DNA of 64,000 nt from a virus. Position 1 is the first letter of the stretch, and the number at the start of each line of letters is the position of its first letter. The notes beneath the pieces are model-generated. The model was not told where the DNA came from, did no database searches, and worked only from the letters and a program-made list of their open reading frames with translations. Below, in pieces: positions 1,603 to 18,348 of this stretch. The stretch is from positions 1-64,000 of the IMG/VR virus record IMGVR_UViG_3300037091_000121. One strand, given 5' to 3'. The translations under genes were made by a program, and so were the position numbers.

Positions 1603-1824
1603 TTACGTCTCCTCGTCAACCTCGCACTTGGACCACTCGTTTTTAACCTTGTTCATCACCTCATGGCCCTTATCCGTATCCCAATGACCGGGAGGGAACG
1701 CTTCGAGAATATGCTGATGAGCCAAGGCGGTAATGTGCATCCGTTCCATGTTCTTCATAACCTGCTCGAATACCTGATCAATCTCTTCTTGCGTCAAATA
1801 TTCCGGTTTCCAGTTCACGTTCAT
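1603..1824 (-). CDS. hypothetical protein, 73 aa
   Basis: Small charged helical protein beginning MNVNWKPEYLTQEEIDQ. The ATG at 1824 overlaps the stop of the HNH gene (ATGA), so it may be translationally coupled; an in-frame ATG at 1833 is the alternative. Its stop lies 4 nt before the start of the 383-aa structural gene. No function recognised. Confidence 0.55.
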   Translation of the reverse strand: MNVNWKPEYLTQEEIDQVFEQVMKNMERMHITALAHQHILEAFPPGHWDTDKGHEVMNKVKNEWSKCEVDEET

Positions 1825-3077
1825 TTTATGCATAACCTTTCACGTTTAGTCGTGCGTCCATCAGCGGACGCTATCGGTCCACCAGCATCGTGGTATCCTT
1901 TACCCTTTAGGATCTTCCTAATATGCTCTTCGTTCATCCCGAACTCTCCAGCAAGGTATGCGATTTTTACTCCACCTGCTGCGTATCGCTCCCGCATCGA
2001 CTTAACCTGATCGTTAGTCAGCATCGCCCGGCGGGCACTAGCCCCGCTAGGATAATCCTTGAACTCGTGCATCGGGCCTTCGTGGATCGGACCAGGCGCT
2101 GACTTCCAGATCTTTCCCTTAACGATACTTCCTACCAAGGACGGGTCAACCTCAAACCTTCTTGCTAGATCTTCCAGAGAGTGCTTTCCAGTGGCATACA
2201 AGCATCGCATCGAGAGAACGTAGACTTCCTTCAGCTTACTGTTACCAACACGCTCTCCAGATCTAACCTTGCGGGAACCAACCTTCTTCAATGGACCTTC
2301 CTCGAACTTCCTGTCTACTCCTGTAAGAATTCGTTCCATGCTTCTCCTGGTTATTCCCATTGCAACACCTATCTGCGCTGCTGAAAGATCAGTCTTTGCG
2401 TATGCAACCCTGGCTTCAATAACCTCGGCCGAAGTCAACCGGCTACTGTGGTGCGCCTCTCCACTTGGAATCCTACGTCGCTCTCTGGCGTCATCCATAT
2501 TCTGCTTCTGTGTTCCTGCTACTAGGTGTGCCGGGTTGCAACATCTAGGATTATCGCAGGTATGCCTACAAACCTCTTTAGAATCTAGCGGTCTCTCCAG
2601 GCTAATCTCTAGCATCAGGCGAGATACTGGAGTTCTTTTCCCGAACACTCGGAGATGACCGTGGCTGCTGTGTTGAACCTGACCTAACCATCCCCAACAC
2701 TCATTATATCCCCGAACGTCTATTTTCCCCCACAGTCTATCCACTACTGGGCTTCCCCCTTCACGGCAAACCCTATGCGTTCCCATACGCATCATGTCGT
2801 CTACATTTTGCTTCGCCGTCCCCTCGTAGATATGATTCGGATTGCAACAATGTCCATTCCCACAGGAATGGCAAGCTCTCATTCCAGGACCAAGGATTCT
2901 CCCCAGACTCTCCTCCAGAATAACCCTGGCTACCTTTTGAGGTCTTCCGTTCACCCTGGCAAAAGGTCTCCAGTTAGGGTTATCCCTATTGGAGTCTTCG
3001 TTTATCCAGCCCCAACACACCCCAGGTTCGGCTTTTCGGATTCTGGAATGCACTCGCTCCATATCTGTGTTCGGCAC
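1821..3077 (-). CDS. free-standing homing endonuclease with two HNH domains
   Basis: GTG start at 3077 behind GGGAGGG. The 418-aa protein has two tandem HNH_3-type domains (about residues 60-115 and 140-190), each with the CHxCxNxxCCNPxHL zinc/catalytic pattern. About 220 residues with three helix-turn-helix units follow, two ending in I-x-KGK and one in ILTG. Related proteins make site-specific breaks that copy their own gene into empty alleles. It has its own promoter (3101-3129) and lies inside the 3' end of the adaptor gene, so it behaves like an inserted cassette. Tandem HNH domains in one chain are unusual. Confidence 0.85.
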   Translation of the reverse strand: MPNTDMERVHSRIRKAEPGVCWGWINEDSNRDNPNWRPFARVNGRPQKVARVILEESLGRILGPGMRACHSCGNGHCCNPNHIYEGTAKQNVDDMMRMGTHRVCREGGSPVVDRLWGKIDVRGYNECWGWLGQVQHSSHGHLRVFGKRTPVSRLMLEISLERPLDSKEVCRHTCDNPRCCNPAHLVAGTQKQNMDDARERRRIPSGEAHHSSRLTSAEVIEARVAYAKTDLSAAQIGVAMGITRRSMERILTGVDRKFEEGPLKKVGSRKVRSGERVGNSKLKEVYVLSMRCLYATGKHSLEDLARRFEVDPSLVGSIVKGKIWKSAPGPIHEGPMHEFKDYPSGASARRAMLTNDQVKSMRERYAAGGVKIAYLAGEFGMNEEHIRKILKGKGYHDAGGPIASADGRTTKRERLCIK

Positions 3078-3853
3078 GGTATCGGCCCTCCCTTGAATGG
3101 AGTATACCGTTCCGACCTCGATTTGTCAACCACTGATAGCAAGCGAACACGTGAAGCGATAAATCGACCTTGAGTTTCAGGACTGAACGTAGGATAAAAG
3201 CTGGTCAAAGGCGCAGCCCATCGTTGTTTAGCGGCCGGTAGACGGCGTTGTATTTCCGCTGTGTATGCTGCGATACGTTGGGTGTTAATAGGGTCCGGGT
3301 GCGCCGAAAGCCAACCAATCGCAGCGTCGTATCGCACAAGCTGCTGGTCCATATCCGACAGCTCTGGTGTTCCGCTTACCTGCAACCCATCATCAGCCGA
3401 TCCAATCCATCGCCATCGCAGATACTTGACACCAGGCACCAGGAATGGCGGATTCCCCAAGATGGAGTCCTCGGAAGCAGGCGGGTTCAGGATCAGGCTT
3501 CGCCCTTCAATCGCATACTGGGTTGGTGTCCCCGGCTCTGCTGAACGCCAGTTAATCGTCCCGCCAGAGACATTTGTCGTATTTAACGAAATAGCATATG
3601 TAGATGTAGGTTTCAACTGGTAGTGATTATATTCAACCCATATCATCCAAGCGAGGTTCCTGGGCAATGGATACTCTCTTTGGCCGGCGACCAAAAGTAT
3701 GTCGTCGTCCTCGATTACATCCATCTGAAGTTCGGAAGCCAACCAAACCAAGCTTGGATTGATAAAGTGGTCTAGCTCAAGCGCAGGGACTTCGTTGACG
3801 GTAGGATTCCCGATAAGCAGTCGTAAAGTTCCGCGTAGTTGATCGGCTGTCAT
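3002..3853 (-). CDS. neck/adaptor-like protein, C-terminus overwritten by HNH cassette
   Basis: 283 aa. It is helical at the N-terminus and then has an AGQREYPLPRNLAWMIWVEY segment. This matches VPGVQEYVMPADAIEIVWVQY in the C-terminal domain of the 4616-6598 protein, so the two are paralogous head-to-tail connector-type domains. The last 25 or so residues are encoded inside the HNH cassette and the ORF overlaps the HNH gene by 76 bp. The natural C-terminus was therefore probably replaced on insertion. Role at the portal-tail junction is inferred. Confidence 0.6.
   Translation of the reverse strand: MTADQLRGTLRLLIGNPTVNEVPALELDHFINPSLVWLASELQMDVIEDDDILLVAGQREYPLPRNLAWMIWVEYNHYQLKPTSTYAISLNTTNVSGGTINWRSAEPGTPTQYAIEGRSLILNPPASEDSILGNPPFLVPGVKYLRWRWIGSADDGLQVSGTPELSDMDQQLVRYDAAIGWLSAHPDPINTQRIAAYTAEIQRRLPAAKQRWAAPLTSFYPTFSPETQGRFIASRVRLLSVVDKSRSERYTPFKGGPIPCRTQIWSECIPESEKPNLGCVGAG
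3101..3129 (-). promoter_or_regulatory. sigma-70 type promoter for the HNH gene
   Basis: On the minus strand TTGACA, 17 nt, TATACT, followed after a short leader by a Shine-Dalgarno and the GTG of the HNH gene. It lies within the 3' coding end of the 3002-3853 gene. Confidence 0.8.
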
Positions 3854-4615: not shown

Positions 4616-6598
4616 TTAGAGCGCGATGCTCTTCCTTGCTGAATCCTCAGTCGCTGCCACCATTCCAGCATCGAACTCGGCCTTCAGTGCTGTTGCACGT
4701 TGGGTTGCTACTACTGAATCGGGAAAACACGCCGACCAGAGGTAAGCCCCATACATCACCACTAACCTATAGTATATCGAAGGAAGCTGGTCGGGTCCAG
4801 CGGTCGTAATGCTTGGTGGTGTAGCCTTCCTTCGGATCGTCAAGTTAGGGGCCTGCGACACTGCTAATGCCGAAGGCGCGGGCCTGATAACGAAGTGATT
4901 TCCGCCGTAGTGTGCCCAATAGAGCGGTTCAGCAGGCACTTCATTACGCCAGTCCTCACCTAGCCTACGCCACTGCTCAACGTCGCCCTTCTCCAGTAAC
5001 CTGTTAGTTCCATACTGAACCCAGACGATCTCAATGGCATCGGCAGGCATCACGTATTCCTGAACTCCAGGAACAAGGGTTACTTCCGTGCTATCAGTGA
5101 CCACATAGTACCGGATCTGGCGATATATCTGCTGGCAACCCCAATCTAAGTAGATATCCACGACTGAATCAGGAATGACCTGGGTGTTCCGCTCATTGGT
5201 CAGCTCTCGCCAAAGGTTACGCATCGTTACCGTGGCGGCAGGTTGAACAGTAACAGGAACTCCAGTCTGACCCGCGAGGATGCTGCTAGAGTTCAGCAAG
5301 TCTGCGAAGTTCTCCTTGCAAATACTTGCTGATATCAAGGCTCCGCCGCCAGCCACAGCGTTCAGGGAGAAGTCTCCTGTGCCCGCACTTGTGAACGGGA
5401 TAGCAGTAAGAGTGGTGTCATCAGCCGCTGCTGGCATATTCAGGTATCTGCCTACTCCGGTAGTGAAGAAGTCGTTACACTTGAAGGTGTTGTCAACCCA
5501 AGTCTGACCCCCAGGACCGGTAACTGTAGCAGGGGAAGTCTGGCGATATGCGATGTCGTATAAAGTGTTATTACCGAAGATGCAGCTCTCTATCGTGCTA
5601 AACTCTCCGAAGTGAAGACTTGTCGGAGTAATATCCAGGCCATACTGGGAAGCACCCCAGAGGACACTATTTCTCAAGATCGCACCAGTGCTGTTGGCAT
5701 TGATCTGAACACCTACCGCACCGCCATCCACAACGCAGTAACTCAACCTAATTGGACTGCCACCCTCCACGCTAACACCAGCCTGCCCTGCCCCTGCGTC
5801 TATTCGGCAAAACTCTAACAAGTTTCCGCCAGTATCCCTAATCGCCGCTACGTTCGTTCCGCCCTTTATCCAGCACCTTCGGATTATCTGCAATGCGCTG
5901 ATTTCAAGAGCGTATCCGGCTGTAGATGTAGCGTCAAAGATACAGTTCTCGATAATCTGACCCAGTGCTCCGGCTGATACCGTAGCTCCGGCAAAAGAAC
6001 CCGATGTCATAAGGTTCTTGAACACAGTCCACTCAGCAGTCCAGTTCCCAACCTTAGCCAGATGGGCTATCCCTCCGTCACCACGAACCAAACTGTATCC
6101 TTCAACACGAACGTAATTCTCTTCAGCTCCATTGATACCTATATTGCTGCCGATCGTACTGGCGTATGCCGTAACCACCCCCGCAGAGTTAGTGTCCCTT
6201 ACCCAGATTATGTTTCCAGGGACCACCACCGAGAATTCATATGGTTCCAGAGATGAGACCGCTGTCCCCTTGGCTCCACCAGCTCCTCCTACGTTGGCTG
6301 TCTGTCCGGAGAAAGAACCCGTGGCTCTGTCTACTACAACCGCATTGCTGCTAGTCCTGGTGATAATCTGGTAGAGGTTGCTGTTGACGTGAATCCCGTT
6401 CCCTTGCATCGAAACAGTGAAACCGCCAGTGGCCGAAGTTATACTTGTAGTCCCTGTTCCGGCAGCATCTGTTACAGTTAAAATAGGAGTCGCTGACTGG
6501 CTAAAGTCTGTGCCTGCGAACGAAGGGCTAAATCCTACGCCGTTGGCTAGGGCTCCGTCTGGCCTAATCTCATAAACGGAATCTGCAGTCCAGGCCAT
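4616..6598 (-). CDS. fusion of right-handed beta-helix and neck/adaptor domain, 660 aa
   Basis: Residues 1-450 form a parallel beta-helix-like array with repeats such as IIENCIFDATS, IIRRCWIKGGT, LLEFCRIDAGA, RLSYCVVDGGA and ILRNSVLWGAS. These folds are typical of tail spikes and polysaccharide-binding proteins. Residues 465-660 (RNLWRELTNERNTQVIPDS onward) match the adaptor-like protein at 3002-3853. The protein thus seems to join a spike-like domain to a connector domain. No catalytic residues can be assigned. The ATG overlaps the stop of the preceding 77-aa gene. Confidence 0.7.
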   Translation of the reverse strand: MAWTADSVYEIRPDGALANGVGFSPSFAGTDFSQSATPILTVTDAAGTGTTSITSATGGFTVSMQGNGIHVNSNLYQIITRTSSNAVVVDRATGSFSGQTANVGGAGGAKGTAVSSLEPYEFSVVVPGNIIWVRDTNSAGVVTAYASTIGSNIGINGAEENYVRVEGYSLVRGDGGIAHLAKVGNWTAEWTVFKNLMTSGSFAGATVSAGALGQIIENCIFDATSTAGYALEISALQIIRRCWIKGGTNVAAIRDTGGNLLEFCRIDAGAGQAGVSVEGGSPIRLSYCVVDGGAVGVQINANSTGAILRNSVLWGASQYGLDITPTSLHFGEFSTIESCIFGNNTLYDIAYRQTSPATVTGPGGQTWVDNTFKCNDFFTTGVGRYLNMPAAADDTTLTAIPFTSAGTGDFSLNAVAGGGALISASICKENFADLLNSSSILAGQTGVPVTVQPAATVTMRNLWRELTNERNTQVIPDSVVDIYLDWGCQQIYRQIRYYVVTDSTEVTLVPGVQEYVMPADAIEIVWVQYGTNRLLEKGDVEQWRRLGEDWRNEVPAEPLYWAHYGGNHFVIRPAPSALAVSQAPNLTIRRKATPPSITTAGPDQLPSIYYRLVVMYGAYLWSACFPDSVVATQRATALKAEFDAGMVAATEDSARKSIAL

Positions 6599-10844: not shown

Positions 10845-11819
10845 CTACACTAACTTTACGTTACGCTTACTCCAATGCCTATCGCCCTTGGTGCTTGTGT
10901 CGTTGGGTAAATCGAGAAGCAGATGGCCCCACGTCTTCCCCGTAAGTATCTTCTGGATAGTTCCTCGGTCGGAACCATAAGCATCCGCGATCTGTTGGGC
11001 ACTCTCGGTTCCGATGTTGTATCGGTCCACTATCTGCCTAACCTTTGCTTCGGTTAGCATGTGCCTAACCTGACCGATCTTGCGATGCTCTCGCTTCTCG
11101 TAGGCAGACTGCCATTGGCATTTATCAGAGCAGAAACGCCTCTTCGCGTCCCTTATCTCCATTATACTTCCACAACGCTCACACGGCCTCTGATCCGTCG
11201 GCTTGGAGGCAAACCAATGATTGTAGCACTGGTCAACGCTTCGATAGCAAATACGGTTACAGTCATCTTCTCGACAGATACGGGCAGGCTTCGAAACCTT
11301 CTCCGTCTTACCTTCAACTTCTACGAACTCCCTACCAATGCAATCACCGCGCTTGTTAAGAAGCCTGATCTCGTCGTAAAGCACCTTCACGATAGGCTGA
11401 TCGGCAAGAGCCCAACCTCGCTTAACTCTTCCATCGGCGTGATTACCTCGAAGCGAAAGGAACGTAACCACGATCTCTGCCTGACGCTTCTTGGTTACCA
11501 GATACGGCAAAACTTGCGGTAGAACGTGCCTTATCTGATTACCACCCAGTTTCCACTTATAAAGGGCCTTACGACCCTCTCTGCTCTCCGCTCCTTCGTC
11601 AATACGTCCATTACCCGTTAGTCGAACCAATTCCTCAAGTTGACCAACCCTGGTATTAGACGCATCTATTACGGCAACCACAGCTTCTCTGACATTCAAT
11701 CCAAAAGGCTTTCGAAGGTGCAACGCTATGCTACCCTCGGCCTCCAGATACATCGCAACAGCCCGAGCCTCACCCACATCCATAACCTTGTCAGATACAA
11801 CGTTTTCCTTGTATGCCAC
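10845..11819 (-). CDS. free-standing LAGLIDADG homing endonuclease with zinc ribbon and HTH
   Basis: GTG start behind GGGAGGG with its own promoter (11843-11871). Residues 18-35 hold one LAGLIDADG motif (VAMYLEAEGSIALHL). Residues 185-245 hold Cys-rich zinc elements (ICREDDCNRICYRS, RPCERCGSIM, RFCSDKC). Residues 255-300 are a helix-turn-helix ending TIQKILTGKTWGHL, nearly the same as in the HNH gene at 26984-27442. One motif suggests a homodimer. It sits between the capsid and decoration genes as a mobile cassette. Confidence 0.8.
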   Translation of the reverse strand: MAYKENVVSDKVMDVGEARAVAMYLEAEGSIALHLRKPFGLNVREAVVAVIDASNTRVGQLEELVRLTGNGRIDEGAESREGRKALYKWKLGGNQIRHVLPQVLPYLVTKKRQAEIVVTFLSLRGNHADGRVKRGWALADQPIVKVLYDEIRLLNKRGDCIGREFVEVEGKTEKVSKPARICREDDCNRICYRSVDQCYNHWFASKPTDQRPCERCGSIMEIRDAKRRFCSDKCQWQSAYEKREHRKIGQVRHMLTEAKVRQIVDRYNIGTESAQQIADAYGSDRGTIQKILTGKTWGHLLLDLPNDTSTKGDRHWSKRNVKLV

Positions 11820-11898: not shown

Positions 11899-13271
11899 TC
11901 ACAACGAGCCCGCGACCCCAGTTGGGTGGGTAATCCCATGGCTTTCCCTGTAGCTACCCGTCAAAACCAAGTTGCCGGTCGCAAGGCCATCGGTTTCCCG
12001 CTGAAGAGAGATAGGCCGACGATTGAACCAGAGAACAGCAGTCTCTTTCTTATCGGCCATAAGGAACCAGCGACCATCGTTGGTCATATGGGTCATTACG
12101 ATAACCTGAAGATCGAGAGCGCGAATGGTGTTGGGGTCGTTGTCAGCAGTGAAGGGCCTCTGAATCGAGTTCACGATCCGCTGGGCATTGAACCGATCGT
12201 CGGTGCCCACCACGAGCCTGACAGGCTGAATGGCGAGCTTCCGGCCTCTCTGGTCAACCATACCCGAAGACCACTGGTTGAGGAGCGCCTCAAGGCTCTC
12301 AATGGACAGGTCGGCACCGCTCGAAAGCTGGTTCGACCACGTTCCACCGTCAGCCCGGAAGTGGACCTGGGAGAGCAGGGGATAACCCGTCCCGTTAGCC
12401 GTATACTGGACAGCCGTGCCGGCGTTGTTGAAGAGGTCCATAGCGTTGACCTCCTGCGTGTAAGCAGCCGCACGAGCAAGCTCTCGACCGAACTCCGGGA
12501 ACACTCCGTAAAGTTCGTCCTCCATCGCCTCCATAGTGATACGGCACTGGAGAGCATACGTATTGTGGACATACGTGCGCTTCCACGCTTCAGCACCACT
12601 ATCCTGGGCCGCAGGCGCGCCCTGGGCCTTCAGGAAAAACTGGCCAAGACCAGCCATTACCGTCTCGTTCTCCTGGCCCTTAACGGACCCGTCGATACGG
12701 TAAATCTGCTGGAACTGCTTGACAGCCTCGAGCCCAAACCTTCGATCCCCTCGGCTCTTTATCCGAGGGCTACGAGTTTCCTCGCAGATGGGACTATCTC
12801 TTCACCTCATAGAGGTGCGGGGCACTCGTGGAGCTTTCGGCGTTTCTCGTCTACTTGCTCTAGTCTCTGAACCTTCCGAGAATTCCTTCTCGGCTTGGCT
12901 GCGGATTACCATGCCTTTCGGTTTAGGCTTCCCGCAATTCACCCCGTCTTCACTACCGCATCGCTACGGCAGGGAGCAGCTTTAATCCTACTCGTTAAAA
13001 TAAACGTGCTCGCCCTTTACAAGGGTTTGGACTATCTCATCACCCGCTATGGGGTGCCGGACGCTCTAGCCTGTATTCAGGTAGTCTCTGAACCTTCCGC
13101 AATTTATGCGGCTTGGCTGCGGATTGGGATTTCTCCGTTCCCGCAATTCATCCGGTTATCACTCCGGCCTCACGACCGAAGGGCGCCACTTTCAGGGCTA
13201 CGCAGCCCTCTTTCGAGCTGATCCGCAACGTTTGCGGTTGTCATCACGCCTGAGGGAATAATCCCAGGCAT
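11899..13271 (-). CDS. major capsid protein, interrupted by two group I introns
   Basis: Proposed join: 13271-13216, 13010-12998, 12738-11899 (56+13+840 nt, 302 aa). ATG at 13271 has GAGG 6 nt upstream. The spliced N-terminus reads MPGIIPSGVMTTANVADQL-ARLF-FGLEAVKQ. The large exon carries features of HK97-fold capsid proteins: VMAGLGQFFLKAQG, YAVHNTY-like segment, FPEFGRELARAAAYTQE, PVRLVVGTDDRFNAQRI, and the C-terminal GNLVLTGSYRESHGITHP. Scaffold lies upstream and decoration genes downstream. Splice sites were chosen from P1 pairing, a terminal intron G and frame; without splicing the frame is broken by stops. Capsid identity is strong, exact junctions are inferred. Confidence 0.8.
12739..12997 (-). 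other. group I intron 2 of the capsid gene (259 nt)
   Basis: All four core elements are present on the minus strand: P (GAATTGCGGGAA, 12929-12940), Q (AATCCGCAGCC, 12897-12907), R (GTTCAGAGACTA, 12861-12872) and S (GAGATAGTCC, 12791-12800). After S come a P9 hairpin with a GAAA loop (CTGCGAG/CTCGTAG) and a second hairpin (CCCTCGG/CCGAGGG). P1 would pair TTTATTT at 13004-12998 with GATTAAA at 12987-12981, with a U.G pair at the splice site and one U-U mismatch. The intron carries no ORF. Confidence 0.8.
13011..13215 (-). other. group I intron 1 of the capsid gene (205 nt)
   Basis: Core elements P (13138-13149), Q (13115-13125), R (13082-13093) and S (13029-13038) have the same sequences as in intron 2, so one intron probably arose from the other. 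P1 is CAGCTC-GAAAGA-GGGCTG (13220-13203), a 6-bp stem with U.G at the splice site. P9 is a short CCC/GGG hairpin and the last base is G 13011. No ORF inside. Confidence 0.8.
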
Positions 13272-17512: not shown

Positions 17513-17687
17513 TTTTTTCCTTCTCCTTATTCTTACATTCAGGACACTCTACACCGCGAAGAACCGACCCCGCTGCATCCAAATCAGCAGATTCTTTAAA
17601 ATAATACCATACCAAATGCCCACAAATATGCTTTATGCAGACCCCCAAGCTATCATCATCCAACCCCTGAATCTCCTTTAACCACAT
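17505..17687 (-). CDS. zinc-ribbon protein, 60 aa
   Basis: Start placed at MWLKEIQGLDDD (17687) to limit overlap with the phosphatase gene to 32 bp. CIKHICGHLVWYYF and GVECPECKN supply two Cys/His pairs for zinc. No function known. Confidence 0.5.
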   Translation of the reverse strand: MWLKEIQGLDDDSLGVCIKHICGHLVWYYFKESADLDAAGSVLRGVECPECKNKEKEKIG

Positions 17688-18348
17688 ATCCTTTGTCGAG
17701 TTGATGGATGGACCACTTTCCACTAGGAGAGGGTCTAAAGTCGTAGATACCGCCTGGCTCGGTATTATCACGGAACTCCAGATCGAAGTCAATCTTTGGG
17801 TTATCCGTCCCCGTCTTTACCCAGCCCTCAATCAATTTAATGCACCTGCTGTGCGTTACGCAACACACCGTAATCCCCTGCCCCTCAACGTGCTGCATCA
17901 ACTTCCTGATCCACCCAATTAAACGCTTCTTCCAAGCCGCGAAACTCTCGCCGCCTTTTACCGGAACCATAGGATGATCCTCTGCATACTGGCGCAGCAA
18001 AGGCTTGGCTATCACCGCGCTCATCCCAGTGAACTCACCCATATCCCAGGGCAGCAGTTCCTTCTTCTTCCTCGGCTTCAATCCTATCGGCCCACCGATC
18101 TCTCTAGCAGTCACCAGGGCTCGAACCAAGGGGCTGCAATACAGTTCTACTATGCCAGCATCCTTCAGCCTCTCTCCTCTATCCTTGGCCTCCTTGACAC
18201 CTACCGATGTCAATGGATGATTGCTCTGCCCCCTCACAACGTCACCAGCAGTCCCCTTCTTCTGGTTATCGGCTGTGGCTCCGTGTCTCACAATCAGGAT
18301 TCTAGGGCCTGGAAAAGCAGATACATCGTTAATGTTTTGAGACTTCAT
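17656..18348 (-). CDS. histidine phosphatase superfamily protein, 230 aa
   Basis: RILIVRHGATADNQKKG holds the catalytic RHG. The second half has the partner His in VCCVTHSRCIKLIEGW and the acidic ELLPWDMGEFTG segment, all typical of the phosphoglycerate-mutase/phosphatase superfamily. The family transfers phosphate through a His intermediate. The substrate cannot be read from the sequence. It is encoded right after the portal gene, an unusual place for a metabolic enzyme. It could remove phosphate from a nucleotide or protein during infection. Confidence 0.85.
   Translation of the reverse strand: MKSQNINDVSAFPGPRILIVRHGATADNQKKGTAGDVVRGQSNHPLTSVGVKEAKDRGERLKDAGIVELYCSPLVRALVTAREIGGPIGLKPRKKKELLPWDMGEFTGMSAVIAKPLLRQYAEDHPMVPVKGGESFAAWKKRLIGWIRKLMQHVEGQGITVCCVTHSRCIKLIEGWVKTGTDNPKIDFDLEFRDNTEPGGIYDFRPSPSGKWSIHQLDKGYVVKGDSGVG

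What the first reader, a model, noticed from the sequence alone, without database searches (positions are those of the whole stretch)
11899..13271. Major capsid gene with two tandem group I introns and a 13-nt exon between them
Two complete sets of group I core elements (P, Q, R, S) lie within 480 bp. Both introns have a P1 stem with U.G at the splice site and both end in G. Using those sites the three exons join in frame into a normal capsid N-terminus; unspliced, the frame is broken. The middle exon would be 13 nt, about 4 codons (bases 13010-12998). Such a microexon between two self-splicing introns is rare in phage capsid genes. Intron 2 P1 has one mismatch, so the site could shift by one or two nt.
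Basis: partly seen in the sequence, partly recalled or inferred. Interest (0 to 1): 0.92.

Follow-up and report, generated by a model that had tools for sequence, protein, structure and literature searches.

The report
Capsid gene with two adjacent introns
A phage's major capsid gene is interrupted by two self-splicing RNA introns only 19 letters apart, so both must be removed before any capsid protein can be made; such tiny exons are rare but were already known from phage Twort.

Summary
The two group I introns are real. Rfam finds both above threshold on the minus strand (89.3 and 63.9 bits), inside the N-terminal coding region of a major capsid gene; unspliced, the frame stops after 33 codons. 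From P1 and P10 pairing, the position of P2, the 3' end spacing of related introns in recognisable genes, and uninterrupted capsid relatives, I place: exon 1 13271-13200, intron 1 13199-13009 (191 nt), exon 2 13008-12990 (19 nt, CACGTTTATTTTAACGAGT), intron 2 12989-12735 (255 nt), exon 3 12734-11899. The joined 308-aa protein (ERGLRHVYFNEWLEAVKQFQQIYRIDGS) aligns without a gap to the relatives across the junctions. The 13-nt exon scores 5.2 bits lower, needs indels and has weaker P1 helices. No relative checked has an intron here. The two introns belong to one subfamily but are not each other's closest kin, so they probably arrived separately. Neither encodes an endonuclease; two LAGLIDADG-like genes flank the capsid gene, as in collaborative homing. 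The closest precedent is Twort orf142 (23-nt exon between two similar introns). Splicing itself was not tested. New member of a known kind.

The parts
13200..13271 (-). exon 1 of the major capsid gene, 72 nt, MPGIIPSGVMTTANVADQLERGLR; ends in GCGU
   Evidence: ATG preceded by AAGAGGT; 4-bp P1 with U.G at 13200; gapless alignment to relatives
13009..13199 (-). group I intron 1, 191 nt, no ORF
   Evidence: RF00028 63.9 bits; sites; reading frames closed
13162..13181 (-). P2 hairpin of intron 1 (CUUCGGUC-GUGA-GGCCGGAG); guide GCGC 13186-13183 just 5' of it, P10 strand GUG 13189-13187
   Evidence: sequence
12990..13008 (-). exon 2, 19 nt, CACGTTTATTTTAACGAGT (HVYFNE plus first base of W)
12735..12989 (-). 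group I intron 2, 255 nt, no ORF
   Evidence: RF00028 89.3 bits; 3' end 13 nt after the P9-region hairpin as in related introns
12953..12972 (-). P2 hairpin of intron 2 (CUGCCGUA-GCGA-UGCGGUAG); guide GCUC 12977-12974 just 5' of it, P10 strand AGCU 12981-12978
   Evidence: sequence
12748..12769 (-). P9-region hairpin CCCTCGG-ATAAAGAG-CCGAGGG of intron 2, shared with related phage introns
11899..12734 (-). exon 3 of the major capsid gene, 836 nt including stop
   Evidence: PF25209 and PF10124
13368..13865 (+). LAGLIDADG-like homing endonuclease gene (165 aa), antisense, just upstream of the capsid gene; free-standing
   Evidence: phrog_5046 E 6e-21; I-CreI-type PDB chains, best E 2.2e-4, weak
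10845..11819 (-). second LAGLIDADG-like gene (324 aa, with a Cys-rich, HTH-like C-terminal part judged by eye), just downstream of the capsid gene; free-standing
   Evidence: phrog_5046 E 6e-13; I-MsoI E 1.5e-5

Best explanation
The major capsid gene of a GroES-bearing podovirus-like phage carries two ORF-less group I introns flanking a 19-nt exon. Each intron folds, pairs its internal guide with the end of the upstream exon (U.G at the site), is attacked by guanosine, and ligates the exons; both must splice to give the 308-aa capsid protein. Exon 2 serves both ribozymes through separate segments: its first bases can form P10 with intron 1 and its last four form P1 with intron 2. The introns use different guides, P10 strands and 3' ends, which should favour inclusion of exon 2 over skipping. 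They were probably acquired independently at neighbouring sites in a conserved part of the gene, possibly with help from the free-standing LAGLIDADG-like endonucleases on either side. Intron identity, frame restoration and pairing are shown; actual splicing, its order, and the homing step are inferred.
For: Rfam matches. 94 relatives without an interruption in the fetched capsid frame. Of 4,473 distinct spliced proteins obeying the U/G rule, the two 19-nt models (differing in the 3' site of intron 2) score 205.7 and 205.1 against a mean of 191.5, sd 2.4. The model chosen is gapless to the profile over the N-terminus, ties for best of 140 models of exactly 308 aa, and has the highest P10 sum among the 25 best-scoring models listed of the 31 with P1 of at least 4 bp in both introns. 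The two introns align to each other up to the same point in P1. Related introns joined by the same kind of rule restore PqqA (E 1.1e-10, full profile), an SU10-type capsid protein and a Synechococcus-phage protein without a gap at the junction, with 3' sites 13, 12 and 13 nt after the same hairpin; here 13 nt. The introns group with different relatives in a tree.
Against: No RNA data. The closest capsid relatives are only about 34-41% identical, so single-residue placement rests partly on RNA structure. Capsid HMM score alone does not separate the 3' site of intron 2 at 12735 from 12747 (205.1 vs 205.7), nor the 19-nt exon from a 23-nt one (13204/13013; 205.1). Intron 1 P1 is only 4 bp and competes in the predicted fold with an AGGGCU-GCGU-AGCCCU hairpin. 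P10 of intron 1 is 3 bp.
Confidence: 0.83

Rival explanations
1. One reading: exon 2 is 13 nt (13010-12998), intron 2 ends at 12739, N-terminus GLARLFFGLEAVK.
For: Open frame and U/G ends; the LF-FGLE stretch resembles LFGLE of the relatives.
Against: HMM 199.9, rank 35; the alignment needs a 1-residue insertion and a 3-residue deletion; no P1 of 3 bp or more at 12998 and only 3 bp at 13204; 3' site 9 nt after the hairpin against 12-14 in related introns placed by gene identity.
Confidence: 0.05
2. Same introns with exon 2 of 19 nt, but intron 2 ends at 12747 (protein ...HVYFNEYRRFGLEAVK, 312 aa), or exon 2 is 23 nt with sites 13204/13013 (GLEHVYFNE).
For: HMM 205.7 and 205.6/205.1; EY-x-R-F resembles the relatives' EY-x-R-Y.
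Against: 12747 lies one base after the hairpin, unlike the related introns (12-14 nt), gives a 4-residue insertion and a weaker P10 (2 of 4); 13204 has a P1 of 3 bp and is out of register with intron 2.
Confidence: 0.1
3. The introns are degenerate or the gene is a pseudogene: no functional capsid protein is made from this locus, or the structure is an assembly artefact.
For: Metagenomic record; no second copy found; two interruptions in an essential gene are unusual.
Against: Both cores match the full Rfam model above threshold; 836 nt of exon 3 are intact; exact gapless restoration of the protein over three exons is unlikely for decayed or misassembled DNA.
Confidence: 0.03

Closest known systems
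Phage Twort orf142 introns 2 and 3 (Landthaler and Shub 1999; described in PMC10136302; gene later identified as tail tube, PMC11878797)
   Same: Two similar group I introns flank a very short exon (23 nt) in a phage structural gene.
   Different: Here the exon is 19 nt, the gene is the major capsid gene, the two introns are not each other's closest relatives, and exon skipping would shift the frame (stop after 49 aa).
Group I introns in phage capsid genes: mycobacteriophage LittleE and lactococcal phage Tuc2009 (PMC3706429)
   Same: Group I type intron interrupting a major capsid gene; U at the exon end and G at the intron end in LittleE.
   Different: One intron there; the LittleE intron carries an endonuclease gene on the bottom strand. 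Here two ORF-less introns.
phiNIT1 rNDPL and SIOphi terminase, Bastillevirinae (PMC11878797)
   Same: Small exon between two introns (phiNIT1); skipping of an internal exon (SIOphi).
   Different: Nucleotide-metabolism and terminase genes; exon size not given in the text I read.
Collaborative homing: ORF-less intron plus free-standing endonuclease that cuts its insertion site (PMC3984707, PMC2988022)
   Same: ORF-less introns with free-standing endonuclease genes beside the host gene.
   Different: Cleavage site unknown here; two introns and two LAGLIDADG-like genes.

Membership tests
Group I intron | Conserved catalytic core scored by covariance model | tested here: met
   RF00028, 89.3 and 63.9 bits, model positions 1-253, gathering score 50
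Group I intron | P1 with U.G at the 5' splice site, guide 5' of P2 | tested here: met
   4-bp P1 GCGU/GCGC and GAGU/GCUC, both just 5' of an 8-bp P2
Group I intron | Intron ends in G and splicing restores the host protein | tested here: met
   Gapless 308-aa capsid protein; both introns end in G
Group I intron | Guanosine-dependent self-splicing | not testable with these tools
   Needs RNA
Group I intron subgroup IA | Extra helices (P7.1/P7.2) between P7 and P3 | tested here: inconclusive
   Extra sequence at that place in both Rfam alignments; no subgroup model was run
Twort-like short-exon intron pair | Two group I introns separated by an exon of about 20 nt | tested here: met
   19-nt exon by the best-supported model
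Twort-like short-exon intron pair | The two introns are highly similar to each other, with exon skipping | tested here: not met
   68% identical over 117 core columns, no closer than to introns of other phages, and not sisters in the tree; skipping itself is not testable here
Collaborative homing pair | Free-standing endonuclease cuts the intron insertion site | not testable with these tools
   Two LAGLIDADG-like genes flank the gene; targets unknown
Phage major capsid protein (PF25209/PF10124) | Family HMM match over the curated cut-off | tested here: met
   41.8 and 31.7 bits, cut-offs 27 and 20.1

The most novel reading that the evidence does not exclude
The 19-nt exon is a jointly used substrate: the two ribozymes splice in an obligatory order or compete through it, and splicing (or frame-shifting exon skipping) sets capsid output, while two free-standing LAGLIDADG enzymes each mobilise one of the introns into the same conserved capsid segment.
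Probability: 0.12. Interest if true: 0.7.

Novelty: new member of a known kind. Interest (0 to 1): 0.45.

Why it matters
If it splices as predicted, the whole supply of a phage's most abundant protein depends on two ribozymes acting 19 nt apart. That gives a compact natural system for asking how neighbouring group I introns avoid exon skipping and how short an exon between them can be. It also shows that conserved N-terminal capsid codons can be invaded twice, and that such genes are easily mis-annotated: in the ORF list this capsid gene appears only as a truncated 252-aa ORF.

Tried and rejected
Structure prediction of the two flanking endonucleases from single sequences gave mean pLDDT 43 and 35, not usable. 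No other contig was found carrying this capsid gene with introns, and no relative was found in the genome contigs. Search for other tandem pairs of this intron subfamily with comparable spacing: 102 pattern hits, none with the core elements of two introns; exact motifs only, so a partial survey. Tandem duplication of one intron was considered and is disfavoured by the tree (modest support on about 120 columns). My own first model (3' site of intron 2 at 12747) was dropped after calibration on related introns. Blastn with the intron region found only a 16% stretch in DNA polymerase genes of Salmonella-phage-type records and nothing in plasmids. An exact search with 17 of the 19 exon-2 bases gave 4 contigs with no capsid relative in them.

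Full report
Setting. The window is most of a 67,202-base virus record. On the minus strand a GroES gene, a portal gene and a capsid gene are found, as in Pelagibacter phage HTVC023P, Roseobacter phage CRP-901, phage DSL-LC04 and Planktothrix phage Pag-Yong1, where GroES precedes the capsid gene by a few genes. The capsid reading frame visible to an ORF finder is only 252 aa (12657-11899) and matches PF25209, PF10124 and phrog_371; relatives are about 300 aa.

Observation. Rfam finds two full-length group I introns just upstream of that frame (89.3 and 63.9 bits). Read straight through from the ATG at 13271 (preceded by AAGAGGT) translation stops after 33 codons; with only intron 1 removed it stops after 30. 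The 94 capsid relatives fetched read on without interruption through the fetched frame; none has an intron here.

Finding the sites. I enumerated splice combinations near the intron ends in which both upstream exons end in U and both introns end in G, keeping those with an open frame: 4,473 distinct proteins, each scored against an HMM of 93 relatives. Mean 191.5 bits, sd 2.4. HMM score alone cannot choose between two 3' ends of intron 2 (12747 or 12735), or between 19 and 23 nt, so RNA structure was used.

P1. In both introns an 8-bp P2 is plain in the fold. Directly 5' of it lie GCGC (intron 1) and GCUC (intron 2), pairing with GCGU and GAGU with U.G at the site. Aligning the introns to each other puts the two chosen sites in register.

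3' ends. 60 viral contig stretches carry the same intron core motif. Several share the hairpin with loop ATAAAGAG found near the end of intron 2. In recognisable genes their splice sites can be read: the L140 intron interrupts pqqA, and the joined peptide matches PqqA over the whole profile (E 1.1e-10), the intron ending 13 nt after the hairpin; L143 interrupts an SU10-type capsid gene (E 2.1e-29), ending 12 nt after it, with no gap at the junction against MW202879; L147 ends 13 nt after it, again gapless at the junction against Synechococcus phage S-EIVl. L125 and L099 give 12 and 14 by mutual alignment of their joined products (read by eye; no database match). With 12735 the exon 3 start GGCU pairs with AGCU next to the guide (P10, 4 bp), and the protein aligns to the profile without a gap across the N-terminus. 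For intron 1, CAC of exon 2 pairs with GUG beside the guide; given the other sites, 19 nt is the length that keeps both the frame and a gapless alignment.

Result. Exon 1 72 nt, intron 1 191 nt, exon 2 19 nt, intron 2 255 nt, exon 3 836 nt; 927 nt of coding sequence, 308 aa. Shown: intron identity, frame restoration, consistency of pairing. Inferred: actual splicing, order, efficiency.

Working. Exon 2 offers separate segments to the two ribozymes: CAC (P10, intron 1) and GAGU (P1, intron 2). Skipping exon 2 would shift the frame (49 aa). PMC10136302 shows that differing guides, P10 and P9 elements can suppress skipping in engineered tandem introns; the two introns here differ in all three. 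A hairpin AGGGCU-GCGU-AGCCCU at the first 5' site competes with P1 in the predicted fold; whether ribosomes opening it matter is open.

Origin. Over about 117-129 core columns the two introns are 68% identical, no more than to introns of other phages; intron 2 groups with L119 (support 0.81), intron 1 with L123 and L100 (0.94). Independent arrival is favoured, with modest support. Neither intron holds an ORF. Two LAGLIDADG-like genes flank the gene (weak matches to I-CreI and I-MsoI); annotated relatives have no gene at the upstream position. This is the layout expected for collaborative homing (PMC3984707), untested here.

Comparison. Twort orf142 has a 23-nt exon between two IA2 introns with skipping (PMC10136302); capsid introns are known in LittleE and Tuc2009 (PMC3706429); phiNIT1 rNDPL has a small exon between introns (PMC11878797). 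The find is therefore a new member of a known kind, with a shorter exon than the published phage case whose size I could read. A motif search of 2.9 million viral contigs for comparable pairs of this subfamily found none, which is a partial survey.

Noticed in passing
L140 (IMGVR_UViG_3300027741_003327), around 680-970: A group I intron of the same subfamily interrupts a pqqA gene (24-aa PQQ precursor peptide) on a viral contig; the joined peptide matches PF08042 over its full length.
   Followed up: partly
L143 (IMGVR_UViG_3300035250_000005), around 2400-2700 of the reverse complement: An SU10-type major capsid gene carries an intron of the same subfamily: a second capsid gene invaded, in another capsid family.
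   Followed up: partly
L123 (IMGVR_UViG_3300001199_000352), around 5211-5450: The closest relative of intron 1 seems to sit in a tRNA gene (3' exon reads GTCGCAGGTTCGAGTCCTGCC...GGGAGCCA).
   Followed up: no
L114, 12387-12425 and 12842-12881: Two intron cores of the subfamily 455 nt apart on one contig; possibly another tandem pair with a longer exon.
   Followed up: no
window 1821-3077 (-): HNH homing-endonuclease-like gene (PF13392, PF05551), overlapping the end of an SU10-adaptor-like gene (3002-3853); a third endonuclease gene in this phage.
   Followed up: no
window 17656-18348 (-): Histidine phosphatase superfamily gene (PF00300) beside the portal gene.
   Followed up: no
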